A stretch of DNA of 64,000 bases from Akkermansia muciniphila (lineage in GTDB: Bacteria > Verrucomicrobiota > Verrucomicrobiia > Verrucomicrobiales > Akkermansiaceae). Location of the stretch: positions 1-64,000 of the forward strand of contig CAMCUY010000001.1 in assembly GCA_945879075.1 (NCBI GenBank), written 5' to 3'. The number at the start of each line of letters is the position of its first letter. Positions within the stretch are counted from its first letter, which is position 1. The notes under the pieces are model-generated. The model ran no database searches and had not been told where the DNA came from. It worked only from the letters and a program-made list of their open reading frames with translations. This document shows, in pieces, positions 27,193 to 33,187 of this stretch. Position numbers and translations under genes: made by a program.

Positions 27193-27277
27193 CACCCGCC
27201 GGATTTCCCCTTCACGCTGGACTTGCGGATGATCCCGTAGAGCCTGTAGAGGTCGTCCGCGAGCGATCTTTAGATTC

Positions 27278-29740
27278 ATGGCCGACAGCTTCCGCCCTCA
27301 AAACCCATCGCCGCCTGTCCTCGGGGCGGGCGGTCCGGTGTGGGATGAAATGAGCGATCCGCGCGGCCAGATCAGGCCGCATTGGCTCAGCATGGGGAAG
27401 AAAATCCACCGATGGAGCACCGAGGAACGCGGTTCCATCGCCGCCGCCGCCGCCCGGATGATCGCGGATCTTGGAACCACCTTCAATGTTTACAGCGATG
27501 TCGGGGGCGTGGGGCAGCCTTATGAACTCGATCCCGTTCCCTTGTTGGTTCCCGCCGCCGAGTGGGCGCAGGTTTCGGCCGGGCTGATGCAGCGGGCGCG
27601 CTTGATCGACACAGTTCTGGCAGATCTCTACGGCCCGCAGCAATTGCTGCGTGAAGGCCTGATCCCGCCGGACCTGGTGAATTCCAGCCCGGCTTTTCTT
27701 CACTATGCGCGCGATGTTCAGCCGGTCGGCGGCCGCTTCGTGGTCACCACCGGCTGCGATCTCGTCCGCCTGGCTAACGGTCAGTGGACCGTGTTCCGCG
27801 ATTACACCAGCGCGCCGGGCGGGCTGGGTCAGGTGTTGGAAAACCGCAACGTCACCTCGAACCTCCTGTCCGACCAGTTCGAAGCCCTGCGCGTCGCCAG
27901 GCTCGGCGCTTTTTTCGATCTGGAGCGCCGCACGCTGCAATCGTTGCTGCCGACGCGCGGCGAGATGCCGAACGTGGTTTTCCTCACGCCCGGTTTCCGC
28001 CATCCGTCATATTTCGAACATGCCTACAAGGCGCGTCTGCTAGGTTTTCCGCTGGTCGAGCCGGCGGACCTCACCGTCCGCGAGCGCCGCCTGTTTTTGA
28101 AAACCCTGTCGGGCCTGCGCCGGATCGATGGGGTGGCCAGCCGGATTGATGACGACGGCCTCGACCCTCTCGAACACTGGGTCCGCGGCCGCGGCGGGGT
28201 GCCCGGAATCGTGGAAGCCTGGCGGAGCGGAAATGTCGCGCTGGCGAACGCGCCGGGCTCGGGTTTCGCGTCGAGTCCCGCGCTGATGCCGTTTCTTCCC
28301 GGGATTTGCCGCAAGTGGTTCGGCGAGGAAATCAAGCTGCCGTTCGTGGAAACCTGGTGGCTCGGCCAGCCCGACGTGCGCCGCCGTGTGCTCGTAAATT
28401 TGCAGCGCTATGTCCTGATTTCCGCATTTCATCGCGACTCTCATCTGCCGCTGCGCTGCGCCAATCTATCACCTGCCGCGCGCAAGCAGTGGGTGGCAGC
28501 GGTCGAGGAGCGCCCGTATGATTTCGTCGTCCAACTGGATATCACCCCGAGCGAGGCACCATCGCTCGAAGCACGGGGAGTCCGCCAGCGCCCGGTCATC
28601 TGGCGGGCCTTCACCGTCAACGCAGCGGACGGTCCGGTCGCTCTGCCGGGTGGTCTCGCCAGAGTGGGGAAAGCCGCGCAAGCGCCTCAGTTGTGGCCGT
28701 CGCACGCGGGATTCACCAAGGACGTGTGGGTCTCTGATAGTGCTACGGATAACAGCGCGAAGGCCGAGGTGAAAAGGCCGCGGCCGCTGCAAGACCGGCA
28801 TCCGGCCGCGCTGGAAGTCCCGAGCCGGATCGCCGAGCAGTTGTTCTGGGTCGGTCGTTACGCGGAGCGCGTCGAGCTGGCGACCCGCCTGCTGCGGGTG
28901 ACCTTGCGCAATCTCAGTGGCGAGGCAGGCCAACTCCAACAGGAGCAACTCGCTGCGTGCCTCAGCTTGATGCGCGGCAGCAATCTCATTTCCAAGGAAA
29001 CTGTCTTCCAAGCGACGCAGACCCAGAAAATCCTCGCCGACCTGATCCATGATCCGGCGGCGCGCGGCGGCATCGCCAGCCTGACCCGCTCGTTGCTGCT
29101 GAACGCCGCCGCCGCTCGTGACCGTCTATCGGACGATACCTGGCGCTTTTTCAACCGGCTTGAAGGCATCGTTCATTTGCCACAGGGACTGGCGAGCACG
29201 GCGGATTTGCTAGGCACTCTCGACACGTTGGTTCTCCATCTCGCGGCCTTCGGCGGGATGCAGGCGGAAAACATGACCCGCGGCCAGGGCTGGCGTTTTC
29301 TTGAAGTCGGCCGCCGCATCGAGCGCGCCCTGAGCGGACTCAAGCTCCTCCGCACGGCGGCGGGGCAGGGGGATGGCGAGTCGCCGCTGCTTGATCCGCT
29401 CTTGGAAACCTGCGACAGCGTGATGACTTACCGGCGCCGCCATTTCTCCCGTCCACGGCTGGACGCGGTGATCGGTCTGGTATTCTTCGATCGGACAAAT
29501 CCGCGCTCCGTCGCCTATCAGATCGGTGTGCTGGACCGGGAAATCGCCTTTTTCCCCGGCGAGTCGGATTTCGGCCTGCTGCCGAAGATCCGCGAGCATT
29601 TGCAGGAGCTCGACCAGCGGTTTATCAATCCGGCCGCTCCCGATGAAAGTGGCTTCGACGGAATCTTCACCTCGCTCGAAGTTTTCGCCGACATGCTCAC
29701 CCAACATTATTTCAGCCACTCGGTGCGGCACGTTTACTGA
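27278..29740 (+). CDS. Circularly permuted type 2 ATP-grasp and alpha-E domain fusion (ATP-grasp centre probably degraded)
   Basis: Residues 1-510 are a circularly permuted ATP-grasp domain (DUF404/DUF407): GTTFNVYSDVGGVGQPYELD, VFRDYTSAPGGLGQVLENRN, VFLTPGFRHPSYFEHAY, RGGVPGIVEAWRSGNVALAN. Residues 514-820 are an alpha-E domain (PSRIAEQLFWVGRYAERVEL, AAARDRLSDDTWRFFNRLEG, FLEVGRRIERALSG). Related proteins are predicted peptide ligases. Where the paralogue at 30701 has VVKAANESGGYGM, this copy reads VLISAFHRDSHLPL: the lysine and glycine-rich loop are missing. It therefore may not bind ATP normally and may act as scaffold or regulator. A transglutaminase gene follows after 1 bp. Confidence 0.85.
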   Translation: MADSFRPQNPSPPVLGAGGPVWDEMSDPRGQIRPHWLSMGKKIHRWSTEERGSIAAAAARMIADLGTTFNVYSDVGGVGQPYELDPVPLLVPAAEWAQVSAGLMQRARLIDTVLADLYGPQQLLREGLIPPDLVNSSPAFLHYARDVQPVGGRFVVTTGCDLVRLANGQWTVFRDYTSAPGGLGQVLENRNVTSNLLSDQFEALRVARLGAFFDLERRTLQSLLPTRGEMPNVVFLTPGFRHPSYFEHAYKARLLGFPLVEPADLTVRERRLFLKTLSGLRRIDGVASRIDDDGLDPLEHWVRGRGGVPGIVEAWRSGNVALANAPGSGFASSPALMPFLPGICRKWFGEEIKLPFVETWWLGQPDVRRRVLVNLQRYVLISAFHRDSHLPLRCANLSPAARKQWVAAVEERPYDFVVQLDITPSEAPSLEARGVRQRPVIWRAFTVNAADGPVALPGGLARVGKAAQAPQLWPSHAGFTKDVWVSDSATDNSAKAEVKRPRPLQDRHPAALEVPSRIAEQLFWVGRYAERVELATRLLRVTLRNLSGEAGQLQQEQLAACLSLMRGSNLISKETVFQATQTQKILADLIHDPAARGGIASLTRSLLLNAAAARDRLSDDTWRFFNRLEGIVHLPQGLASTADLLGTLDTLVLHLAAFGGMQAENMTRGQGWRFLEVGRRIERALSGLKLLRTAAGQGDGESPLLDPLLETCDSVMTYRRRHFSRPRLDAVIGLVFFDRTNPRSVAYQIGVLDREIAFFPGESDFGLLPKIREHLQELDQRFINPAAPDESGFDGIFTSLEVFADMLTQHYFSHSVRHVY

Positions 29741-29741
29741 C

Positions 29742-30626
29742 ATGAAATACCGGCTCATCCATCGCACGAAATACTTCTACGAGGGAGCGGTGACCGTCTC
29801 GCATCATCTGGCGAGACTGGCACCGCGGACCTTGCCGGGGCAGCGTTGTCCGTGGCATGAGTTGGAAATCCAACCCGTGCCCGTCGGCCGCGGCGTGCAT
29901 GTGGATTCGTTCGGAAACTCGACCGCTTATTTCGAAATCGAGGGCAAACATGAAACTCTCGAAGTGACCGCGCGCAGCCTGGTGGAGGTTTTCCCGACGC
30001 AGCATCCCGACGCTCGTTCGACACCGGCGTGGGAGCGGGTCCGCGACGCCTGTCAGTTGGAAAAGCTCACGCCGGGCTCGGAGGCGGGTGCGTTTCGCTT
30101 CGGCTCGCCGATGGTGCCGCTCGGCAAGGAATTCGCGGACTATGCGGCGGCTGAATTTTCTCCAAGTCGCCCGATTTTGGAAGCAGTGCTCGGTCTGACG
30201 AACCGGATTTTCCGAGACTTCAAATTCGACCCGCGCGCGACGGAAGTGAGCACGCCGGTTTCCGAGGTTCTGAAAAAGCGCGCCGGGGTTTGCCAGGATT
30301 TCGCGCACCTGATGTTAGCCTGCCTGCGCTCGCTGGGCCTGCCCGCCCGCTACGTCAGCGGCTATCTGGAAACCAAGCCGCCACCGGGGAAAGTCCGGCT
30401 CACCGGAGCGGATGCGTCGCACGCCTGGGTCTCGGTCTTCTGTGGCGAATCCGCCGGCTGGATCGACACCGACCCGACGAACAACCTGCTGCCCGGAGAG
30501 CGTCACATCACCGTCGCCTGGGGCCGTGATTTCTCCGACGTGAGTCCCCTGCGCGGCGTGACGCTCGGCGCGGGCGGCCAGAAACTCGATGTGGCCGTGG
30601 ACGTGATTCCCGTGGAAGAGCTGTGA
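29742..30626 (+). CDS. Transglutaminase-like cysteine protease/transferase (copy 1 of the ATP-grasp cluster)
   Basis: The N-terminal beta domain (MKYRLIHRTKYFYEGAVTVS) is the bacterial transglutaminase N-terminal type, followed by the papain-like core with catalytic cysteine in KRAGVCQDFAHLMLACLRSL (about residue 183), histidine in DASHAWVSVFC (about 226) and aspartate in GWIDTDPTNNLLPGERH (about 241). The catalytic triad is complete. The start at ATG 29742 directly follows the stop of the ATP-grasp/alpha-E fusion (TGACATG). In this gene cluster the protease is predicted to cut or transfer peptide products made by the ATP-grasp partner (inference from gene neighbourhood). Confidence 0.88.
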   Translation: MKYRLIHRTKYFYEGAVTVSHHLARLAPRTLPGQRCPWHELEIQPVPVGRGVHVDSFGNSTAYFEIEGKHETLEVTARSLVEVFPTQHPDARSTPAWERVRDACQLEKLTPGSEAGAFRFGSPMVPLGKEFADYAAAEFSPSRPILEAVLGLTNRIFRDFKFDPRATEVSTPVSEVLKKRAGVCQDFAHLMLACLRSLGLPARYVSGYLETKPPPGKVRLTGADASHAWVSVFCGESAGWIDTDPTNNLLPGERHITVAWGRDFSDVSPLRGVTLGAGGQKLDVAVDVIPVEEL

Positions 30627-30700: not shown

Positions 30701-32137
30701 ATGGAAATGTTTAAGGGCTACAACCCCGGCAAGTTTTACGACGAGATGTTTGGCGGCGATGGCGCCGTGCGGAGCCACTGCGCGCCGCTTCTCCAGAAGT
30801 TCGGCAAGATTGATGAGCGCGATTTCCTGGCACGCAAGGCGAACTCGGAGCTCTATTTCCTGCGCCAGGGAATCACTTTCAACGTTTATCACGATGATCG
30901 GGGGACGGAGCGGATTTTTCCGTTCGACCCGATTCCGCGGGTGATGCCGGCGAGCGAGTGGGAGCATCTGGAAGCCGGGCTGACGCAGCGAATCGTGGCG
31001 CTGAACTTGTTCCTGCACGATATCTATCACGACCAGCAGATCCTCAAGGACGAGGTGATCCCGCGGTTCTACATCGAGCAGGCGAAGCATTACCGGCCCG
31101 AGTTCCGCGGGGTGGATGTGGCGGCGGATACTTACATTCACATTTGCGGCAGCGATCTGATCCGCGGCGCGGACGGGGTTTATTACGTGCTGGAGGACAA
31201 CGGCCGCTGCCCGTCGGGGGCGTCGTACCTTCTGGAAAACCGCAACGCGCTGAAGCGGGCGTTTCCCGGGATTTTCGAGACGCTGGGCGTGCGTCCGGTG
31301 GATTCGTATCCGCGGGATCTGTTGGACATGCTCCATCACATTTCGCCGCGCCGCGATGGCGATCCGGTGTGCGTGTTGCTCACGCCGGGCTGCCATAACA
31401 GCGCCTATTTCGAGCACTGCTACCTGGCGCGGGAGATGGGCATCGACATCGTCGAGGGCAAGGACCTAGTCGTGGTGGACAAGTTCGTTTACATGCGGAC
31501 GACCCGCGGGCTGCTGCGGGTGGATGTGATCTATCGGCGGATCGACGATGATTTCATCGACCCGGTGGTGTTCCGGAAGGACTCGGTGCTCGGCGTCCCC
31601 GGCCTGATGAACGCTTACCGTGCGGGCAATGTCTCGCTGGCGAACGCGGTGGGAACCGGCGTGGCGGACGACAAGGTGATCTACTATTTCGTCCCGAAGA
31701 TGATCGAGTATTACCTCGGACAGGAACCGATCCTGCCGAACGTCCCGACCTATCTAGCCTCGGAGGAGGCGGACATGAAATACATTCTCGCCAATCTGCC
31801 CGAGCTGGTGGTGAAGGCGGCTAATGAGTCTGGCGGCTATGGCATGTTGATGGGGCCGACTGCGACGAAGGACGAGATCGCGGAGTTCCGCGACCGGATC
31901 ATCGCCGATCCGCGCAATTACATCGCCCAGCCGGTCATCTCGCTTTCCACCTCGCCGACGTGGTGCGACGGCGCGATGGAAGGCCGGCACATCGACCTGC
32001 GGCCGTATATCATTTACGGCAAGGACGTGAAAATCGTCCCCGGCGGCCTCACCCGCGTGGCGCTAGCCAAAGATTCCCTGATCGTTAACTCTTCCCAAGG
32101 CGGCGGCAGCAAGGATACTTGGGTGCTGCGCCACTAA
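30701..32137 (+). CDS. Circularly permuted type 2 ATP-grasp protein (intact copy)
   Basis: A 478-aa stand-alone ATP-grasp of the DUF404/DUF407 kind: MEMFKGYNPGKFYDEMFG, ITFNVYHDDRGTERIFPFDP, IPRVMPASEWEHLEAGLTQR, DGVYYVLEDNGRCPSGASYL, VLLTPGCHNSAYFEHCYLAR and LRVDVIYRRIDDDFIDPVVF. The nucleotide-binding lysine and glycine-rich loop are present near residue 370 (LVVKAANESGGYGMLMGP) and the metal-binding end is IVNSSQGGGSKDTWVL. The predicted activity is ATP-driven amide bond formation through an acyl-phosphate; the acid and amine partners are unknown. It is followed by separate alpha-E and transglutaminase genes (gaps of 6 bp and an overlap). Confidence 0.9.
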   Translation: MEMFKGYNPGKFYDEMFGGDGAVRSHCAPLLQKFGKIDERDFLARKANSELYFLRQGITFNVYHDDRGTERIFPFDPIPRVMPASEWEHLEAGLTQRIVALNLFLHDIYHDQQILKDEVIPRFYIEQAKHYRPEFRGVDVAADTYIHICGSDLIRGADGVYYVLEDNGRCPSGASYLLENRNALKRAFPGIFETLGVRPVDSYPRDLLDMLHHISPRRDGDPVCVLLTPGCHNSAYFEHCYLAREMGIDIVEGKDLVVVDKFVYMRTTRGLLRVDVIYRRIDDDFIDPVVFRKDSVLGVPGLMNAYRAGNVSLANAVGTGVADDKVIYYFVPKMIEYYLGQEPILPNVPTYLASEEADMKYILANLPELVVKAANESGGYGMLMGPTATKDEIAEFRDRIIADPRNYIAQPVISLSTSPTWCDGAMEGRHIDLRPYIIYGKDVKIVPGGLTRVALAKDSLIVNSSQGGGSKDTWVLRH

Positions 32138-32143
32138 ATCATC

Positions 32144-33187
32144 ATGCTCTCCCGAGTCGCCAATACTTTATACTGGATGGTCCGCTACGTCGAGCGGGCT
32201 GACAACCTTGCCCGATTGATCGACGTCAACCAGCAGTTGCTGTTGGATTTTGAACGGCTCGACAGCGAGCGTCTCCGCGGTTTCTGGCAGCCGATCATCC
32301 TGAGCACTGGCGACGAGGAAGCCTTCAGCAAGCTTTACGACGAGACTGGCAGCGACGAGGTGATCCGGTTCCTGACGGATGATCCGCGGAATCATAACAG
32401 CATTACCTCCTGCATCGCCCTCGCCCGTGAAAACGCGCGGACGGTGCGCGACCAGTTGTCCGACGAGCTGTGGGAAGAGTTGAACGCCTTGTATCTTTTC
32501 ACGCGCTCGGACGAGGCGCACCGCTTGATCGATTCCGATCCGCCGAAGTATTACGAAAACATCCGGAGGTCGGTGATGACCTTTCTTGGCATCGCGGCGT
32601 CCACGATTTCGCGCAATGAAGCATGGGAGTTCATGGACTTGGGGCGGCATTTGGAGCGGGCGGACAAGACCACGCGCTTCCTCGATGTTTCGAGCTATCT
32701 GCCGCCGGGAGCGGATGGCTTGGAGGCGATCTCTCCGGGAGTTCTCCATTGGACGGCCATCCTGCGTTCGTGTGGGGCGATGGGAGCATTCCGTGCGGCG
32801 AAGCTCGAAATCAGCGCGCGCGGCATCGCGGATTTTCTGATTTTCTCGAAGGAATTCCCGCGCTCGGTGCGGTATTGCATCGAGAAGGTGGATGCCGGTC
32901 TGCACTTGATTTCCGGAACTCCGCGCGGGTCGTTTTCCAACGAGGCGGAGCGCGAGGCCGGGCGGGTGCTGGCGGATTTGAATTTTGGTTCGACGGAGGA
33001 TCTCTTTGCGTCCGGATTGCACGATTATCTCGATGCGCTGCAAGGGCGGTTCAACCGGATCGGAGCCGAGATTTTTGAAACCTACGTGCTGATGCCGGAA
33101 CGCATCCAGAGCAGTCCCGGGCCGCGGTCTTCCAGTCTATCCGATGTCGCTGCCTGGCAGATGGAACAACAGCAACAGCAACAGTGA
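32144..33187 (+). CDS. Alpha-E domain protein (DUF403)
   Basis: An all-helical protein with the repeated ER motifs that name the family: MLSRVANTLYWMVRYVERAD, CIALARENARTVRDQLSDEL, and EFMDLGRHLERADKTTRFLD. The function of alpha-E domains is unknown; they nearly always occur beside or fused to circularly permuted ATP-grasp proteins and transglutaminases, and are presumed partners. The C terminus is MEQQQQQQ, encoded by a CAACAG repeat that runs up to the stop codon; the next gene starts by overlapping that stop (GTGA). Confidence 0.88.
   Translation: MLSRVANTLYWMVRYVERADNLARLIDVNQQLLLDFERLDSERLRGFWQPIILSTGDEEAFSKLYDETGSDEVIRFLTDDPRNHNSITSCIALARENARTVRDQLSDELWEELNALYLFTRSDEAHRLIDSDPPKYYENIRRSVMTFLGIAASTISRNEAWEFMDLGRHLERADKTTRFLDVSSYLPPGADGLEAISPGVLHWTAILRSCGAMGAFRAAKLEISARGIADFLIFSKEFPRSVRYCIEKVDAGLHLISGTPRGSFSNEAEREAGRVLADLNFGSTEDLFASGLHDYLDALQGRFNRIGAEIFETYVLMPERIQSSPGPRSSSLSDVAAWQMEQQQQQQ

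What the first reader, a model, noticed from the sequence alone, without database searches (positions are those of the whole stretch)
28380..28480. The fused ATP-grasp copy appears to have lost its nucleotide-binding loop
At the place where the stand-alone paralogue reads VVKAANESGGYGM, the fused protein reads VLISAFHRDSHLPL: the ATP-contacting lysine is replaced and the glycines are gone. The C-terminal GGGSKDTWVL of the paralogue corresponds only to FTKDVWVSDSATDN. The fused protein may therefore be a pseudo-ligase that regulates the active copy encoded just downstream.
Basis: partly seen in the sequence, partly recalled or inferred. Interest (0 to 1): 0.6.

Follow-up and report, generated by a model that had tools for sequence, protein, structure and literature searches.

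The report
Fused ligase class lacking ATP site
A bacterial protein built like an ATP-driven peptide-linking enzyme has lost the parts needed to hold ATP and magnesium, and so have all of its sampled relatives, so it most likely serves as a non-catalytic partner in a peptide-modifying gene set whose probable companion ligase has been deleted from this genome.

Summary
At 28412-28453 the fused protein (27278-29740, circularly permuted ATP-grasp + Alpha-E) reads VLISAFHRDSHLPL where the stand-alone paralogue (30701-32137) reads VVKAANESGGYGML. The damage is larger than reported: the Mg ligands E-x-N are R174/Y176 and the second ATP lysine is P334. It is not a loss of this copy. In 95 fused proteins the metal-ligand Asn is kept in 0, the second ATP lysine in 0, and the loop glycines in 3-13%; all are 66/66 in stand-alone proteins. 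Fused and stand-alone proteins form the two sides of one branch, so the change is old and class-wide. The Lys itself is lost repeatedly and survives in about half. The gene is under purifying selection (dN/dS about 0.1) and keeps the fold. 'Pseudo-ligase' is therefore well supported. 'Regulator of the downstream active copy' is not specifically supported: fused genes track DUF2126 (putative amidoligase) far more tightly (24 of 25 carriers in the genus) than the stand-alone ligase, which often occurs without them. In the window the DUF2126-transglutaminase gene, normally just upstream, is deleted, leaving a 42-bp scar at 27199-27240. My reading: a non-catalytic substrate-binding partner of the DUF2126 module, orphaned here.

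The parts
27278..29740 (+). Fused protein P0001, 820 aa: circularly permuted ATP-grasp domain (residues about 22-490) + Alpha-E domain (about 514-812)
   Evidence: Pfam PF14403 383 bits and PF04168 197 bits; AlphaFold model pLDDT 80.5, best PDB match 3n6x TM 0.87 of target
28412..28453 (+). Site of the finding: VLISAFHRDSHLPL in place of K + glycine-rich loop (I381 at 28418-28420 takes the place of Lys)
27797..27805 (+). R174-D175-Y176 in place of the Mg-binding E-x-N (P0002 E165-D-N167; E. coli Gss E330/N332)
28277..28279 (+). P334 in place of the second ATP lysine (P0002 K325; 66/66 in stand-alone, 0/95 in fused)
   Evidence: mapping to E. coli K498 / human GS K305 by motif register (PMC2845819), inferred
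28706..28729 (+). AGFTKDVW, counterpart of the A-loop GGGSKDTW; K481, D482 and W484 kept
28817..29713 (+). Alpha-E domain of the fused protein
29742..30626 (+). Transglutaminase-like protein TG1 (P0005), one base after the fused gene's stop; Cys-His-Asp motifs present
   Evidence: dN/dS 0.037 to L041
30701..32137 (+). Stand-alone circularly permuted ATP-grasp P0002, all catalytic motifs intact; close solved relative 3n6x
32144..33187 (+). Stand-alone Alpha-E protein P0003
33184..34065 (+). Second transglutaminase-like protein TG2 (P0004)
27199..27240 (+). Deletion scar: last 13 codons and stop (PDFPFTLDLRMIP*) of the missing transglutaminase-DUF2126 gene that sits here in L041

Best explanation
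The fused protein belongs to an old, separate class of circularly permuted ATP-grasp proteins that cannot carry out normal ATP-grasp ligation: the E-x-N metal motif, the second phosphate-binding lysine and the glycine-rich loop are missing or incomplete throughout the class. Shown: sequence losses, class-wide distribution, single branch, purifying selection, retained fold (model). Inferred: the domain acts as a non-catalytic partner that still uses the non-nucleotide half of its cleft (the DP..GVPG..N..G and K-D-x-W segments stay conserved) to bind a peptide or a partner protein. The ligase chemistry of its module would be supplied by the DUF2126 putative amidoligase with which it co-occurs, working with the transglutaminase-like proteins and next to the stand-alone ligase module. 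In the window genome the DUF2126 gene has been deleted, so this copy is an orphan, perhaps at the start of decay.
For: Class-wide loss: N167 0/95, K325 0/95, G381 3/95, E165 15/95 in fused; 66/66 in stand-alone. Fused and stand-alone are the two sides of one branch, SH-aLRT 100. The Tsukamurella fused protein shows the same losses. dN/dS 0.07 in the ATP-grasp part, 0.10 overall, against 0.010 for the stand-alone gene. Model closest to 3n6x and glutathione synthetases. DUF2126 co-occurrence: 53 of 64 fused genomes and 53 of 55 DUF2126 genomes in 289 (Fisher 3e-44; within stand-alone carriers p=1.6e-4); 24 of those 53 pairs are more than 10 kb apart or on different contigs; in the genus 24 of 25 each way, p=1e-14. 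Fused remnants occur in genomes without DUF2126. A stand-alone homologue releases phosphate from ATP (PMC6376114).
Against: Co-occurrence is not phylogenetically corrected, and in the genus the genes are usually neighbours and can be lost together. Eleven of 64 fused genomes lack DUF2126, including all six carriers of one family (f4), so DUF2126 is not strictly required. Every fused genome in the phylum sample also has the stand-alone ligase, which fits a partnership with that enzyme too. No binding or activity data exist. DUF2126 activity is itself only predicted. No atomic mapping of the ATP site was made: the match to E. coli Gss was not significant as a score and rests on motif register.
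Confidence: 0.5

Rival explanations
1. One reading: the fused protein is a pseudo-ligase that binds and regulates the active stand-alone ATP-grasp ligase.
For: All 64 fused-bearing genomes of the phylum sample also carry the stand-alone gene, none has the fused gene alone. The two are adjacent in the window, L041 and some other families. The fold is retained.
Against: The stand-alone gene occurs without the fused gene in 10 phylum genomes and 21 of 45 genus genomes. In many genomes the two genes are far apart. Association with DUF2126 is tighter within the genus (p 1e-14 against 9e-4).
Confidence: 0.2
2. The fused class is an active enzyme with altered chemistry, holding ATP or another activated substrate by different residues, as SelO does among kinase-like proteins.
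For: Conserved, non-random replacements: the metal-ligand Asn becomes Arg or His in 72 of 95; D161, R190, D296, R443, K481 and D482 stay conserved; strong purifying selection.
Against: Phosphate lysine, E-x-N metal ligands and the glycine-rich loop would all have to be replaced at once; no invariant new acidic pair or loop was seen in the class.
Confidence: 0.12
3. The window copy is a gene on its way out, without current function.
For: Its DUF2126 neighbour is deleted. Related genomes carry broken or remnant fused genes (G300, G289, G344, G309). Replacement changes are 35 on the window branch against 19 on the L041 branch with outgroup L033.
Against: The 820-codon frame is intact, dN/dS to L041 is 0.10, TG1 next to it is under strong constraint. 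The branch excess is not robust: p 0.02 to 0.73 by outgroup. It would not explain the class-wide loss.
Confidence: 0.18

Closest known systems
Stand-alone circularly permuted ATP-grasp type 2 ligase (PF14403; PDB 3n6x; Yersinia bercovieri Anbu-operon ATP-grasp, PMC6376114)
   Same: Same fold and domain family; operon with Alpha-E and transglutaminase
   Different: Stand-alone proteins have E-x-N, K325, K372 and GGYG intact, and one releases phosphate from ATP; the fused class has none of these sets complete and carries Alpha-E in the same chain
Glutathione and glutathionylspermidine synthetases (human GS, E. coli Gss)
   Same: Fold (Foldseek E 3e-11 and weaker for glutathione synthetases) and order of motifs
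   Different: Metal ligands, phosphate lysines and G-loop absent in the fused class
Anbu operon (ATP-grasp, Alpha-E, transglutaminase, Anbu)
   Same: Three of the four partners are present in the window
   Different: No proteasome-family (PF00227) gene found in the window's genome; a second, fused ATP-grasp is present
Other degenerate ATP-grasp proteins (e.g. truncated ATP-grasp proteins of graspetide branch 8, PMC8939145)
   Same: A non-catalytic ATP-grasp relative encoded with other peptide-modifying genes
   Different: There by truncation of whole domains; here the complete fold is kept and only the ATP and metal sites are gone

Membership tests
Circularly permuted ATP-grasp type 2 (PF14403), as a sequence family | Profile match over full length above curated cut-off | tested here: met
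   383.3 bits against cut-off 32, positions 1-373 of 374
ATP-grasp ligase, as a functional class | E-x-N metal ligands | tested here: not met
   R174/Y176 in the window; N kept in 0 of 95 fused
ATP-grasp ligase, as a functional class | Two phosphate-binding lysines | tested here: not met
   I381 and P334 in the window; K325 0 of 95, K372 45 of 94 in fused. Identity of K325 as second lysine is inferred
ATP-grasp ligase, as a functional class | Glycine-rich loop | tested here: not met
   RDSHLPL; G378/G379/G381 kept in 13/9/3% of fused
ATP-grasp ligase, as a functional class | Glutathione-synthetase-like ATP-grasp fold | tested here: met
   3n6x TM 0.87 normalised by target, E 7e-28
ATP-grasp ligase, as a functional class | ATP-dependent carboxylate-amine ligation | not testable with these tools
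   needs purified protein
Alpha-E domain (PF04168) | Profile match; conserved R-x-x-E-R motif | tested here: met
   197.1 bits; GRYAER at 526-531
Anbu operon | Presence of Anbu (proteasome family) | tested here: not met
   no PF00227 match in the genome, 90% complete
DUF2126-fused ATP-grasp-transglutaminase module | DUF2126 gene in the genome | tested here: not met
   no PF09899 match in G000; 42-bp scar at the expected place
Decaying pseudogene | Broken frame or dN/dS near 1 | tested here: not met
   frame open over 820 codons; dN/dS 0.10

The most novel reading that the evidence does not exclude
A widespread class of full-length pseudo-ATP-grasp proteins handed ligase chemistry over to an unrelated amidoligase (DUF2126) and survives as its substrate-binding scaffold; when DUF2126 is lost the scaffold gene decays, and the window genome is caught between the two steps.
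Probability: 0.3. Interest if true: 0.65.

Novelty: new variant of a known kind. Interest (0 to 1): 0.5.

Why it matters
These proteins are annotated simply as 'circularly permuted type 2 ATP-grasp protein', the same label as the active stand-alone ligases. If the fused half of the family is non-catalytic, many annotations are wrong, and the long-unsolved question of what the Alpha-E / transglutaminase / ATP-grasp gene sets make becomes easier to test, because the roles can be split: stand-alone ligase, DUF2126 ligase, and a non-catalytic fused partner. The genus also offers several independent natural losses of the module.

Tried and rejected
Copy-specific loss: rejected by the 95-sequence comparison. 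Misalignment: rejected, since three alignment routes (phmmer to 3n6x, MAFFT of 163 sequences, a 6-sequence set with distant members) agree on register. Neutral pseudogene: rejected for the class by dN/dS. A significant profile match to E. coli Gss was not obtained (hhalign probability under 1%); only the register of D318/E330/N332 was used. Anbu as partner: not found in the genome. The 2009 amidoligase survey (PMC3268129) that named these gene sets is not held, so I could not check whether its authors already called the fused copy inactive; passages on the ATP-grasp in the held Anbu papers do not mention a fused or inactive copy, and the DUF2126 literature search listed no paper containing that word.

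Full report
What was checked. The fused gene is 27278-29740 (820 aa) and the stand-alone paralogue is 30701-32137 (478 aa). The site is residues 379-392, window 28412-28453.

The loss is wider than reported. Taking the stand-alone protein as ruler, the fused protein has R174 and Y176 for E165 and N167, P334 for K325, I381 for K372, and D387-S388-H389-L390 for the GGYG loop. By register with E. coli Gss, whose D318, E330, N332, K498 and K533 were read from the K-12 genome, E165/N167 are the Mg ligands, and K325/K372 are the two lysines that bind the ATP phosphates, as Lys305/Lys364 do in human glutathione synthetase (PMC2845819). The roles of the Gss residues come from my own knowledge; the letters at those numbers agree. 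The profile match itself was not significant, so this mapping is inference. The C-terminal K-D-x-W is kept.

The loss belongs to the class. I collected fused and stand-alone relatives from 289 genomes of the phylum, from a species-level genome collection and from plasmids. In 95 fused proteins (the window copy included) N167 is kept in 0, K325 in 0, E165 in 15, the three loop glycines in 13, 9 and 3%, and K372 in 45 of 94; in 66 stand-alone proteins each is 66 of 66. The set oversamples the window's own relatives, but Azospirillum, Rhizobiaceae, Burkholderia, Caballeronia, Halomonas and Tsukamurella fused proteins show the same pattern. Fused and stand-alone proteins lie on opposite sides of one branch with SH-aLRT 100 (root not inferred). 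N167 needs one change on that tree, K372 twelve, so the metal site went once and early, while the lysine changed many times, the window's clade being one case. Six ATP-site residues are retained less than other invariant columns (0.15 against 0.56, p about 0.002).

It is not a dead gene. dN/dS between the window and L041 (93% identical) is 0.10 for the fused gene and 0.07 for its ATP-grasp part, against 0.010 for the stand-alone gene. The AlphaFold model (pLDDT 80.5) is closest to 3n6x and then to glutathione synthetases. Conserved columns in the class include R106, D116, R190, D296, G307, G310, N324, G327 and D482, so part of the domain is under constraint while the triphosphate and metal side is not. 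That the retained part binds peptide is inference.

Which partner? All 64 fused-bearing genomes also have the stand-alone gene; 10 genomes have the stand-alone gene only. In the genus, 21 of 45 stand-alone carriers lack the fused gene. So the dependence runs one way. The fused gene follows DUF2126, the C-terminal putative amidoligase domain of a long transglutaminase protein usually encoded just upstream: 53 of 64 fused genomes and 53 of 55 DUF2126 genomes. In 24 of these 53 genomes the two genes are more than 10 kb apart or on different contigs, so linkage alone does not explain it. In the genus both occur in 24 genomes; the exceptions are the window's genome, with fused but no DUF2126, and G307, 59% complete, with DUF2126 only. 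None of this is corrected for phylogeny, and one family (f4) keeps very divergent fused genes without DUF2126.

The window has lost DUF2126. L041 reads BamA - transglutaminase/DUF2126 - fused - TG1 - stand-alone - Alpha-E - TG2. The window lacks the second gene: 3.37 kb of L041 (2548-5921) is absent, and the last 13 codons and stop of that gene remain at 27199-27240. No other copy is in the assembly. In G300 (L051/L162) most of the same gene is gone with other breakpoints, and the fused gene itself is broken; G289 keeps only fragments of fused, Alpha-E and TG2 in order; G344 and G309 hold fused remnants. The window branch shows somewhat more replacement changes than the L041 branch, but not robustly. 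The window assembly is in 135 contigs and the relatives are mostly draft or metagenome assemblies, so misassembly at single sites cannot be excluded.

Conclusion. Observation confirmed; pseudo-ligase supported at the level of the class (about 0.8 by itself); regulation of the downstream copy not specifically supported; partnership with DUF2126 is the better-supported inference, about 0.5 for the whole explanation.

Noticed in passing
27199-27240: Scar of a deleted 3.4-kb transglutaminase-DUF2126 gene: last 13 codons and stop remain between BamA and the fused gene; the gene is absent from the whole assembly.
   Followed up: yes
L161 5380-5791; L162 7549-9899; L163 190-687; L164 5906-6097: Remnants of the same operon in related genomes of the genus, with different deletion breakpoints, suggesting repeated loss of the fused-gene module.
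   Followed up: partly
27803-27805: At the metal-ligand Asn position most of the window's clade has His; the window and L051, both without an intact DUF2126 gene, have Tyr.
   Followed up: partly
G078 C1, G091, G272 and other genomes of families f3, f5, f10, f12, f13: A shorter DUF2126 form (about 710-870 aa, matching the profile in separate blocks) goes with the lowest-scoring fused proteins, hinting that the two proteins change together.
   Followed up: no
28748-28816: The linker between ATP-grasp and Alpha-E domains evolves fast (dN/dS 0.2-2.1 over 23 codons in pairwise comparisons), unlike both domains.
   Followed up: no
L083 4750-8214: A 1155-aa fused protein from G078 keeps Glu of the E-x-N motif and GGGSKDTW but not Asn or the loop; it branches near the stand-alone side and may be an intermediate.
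   Followed up: no
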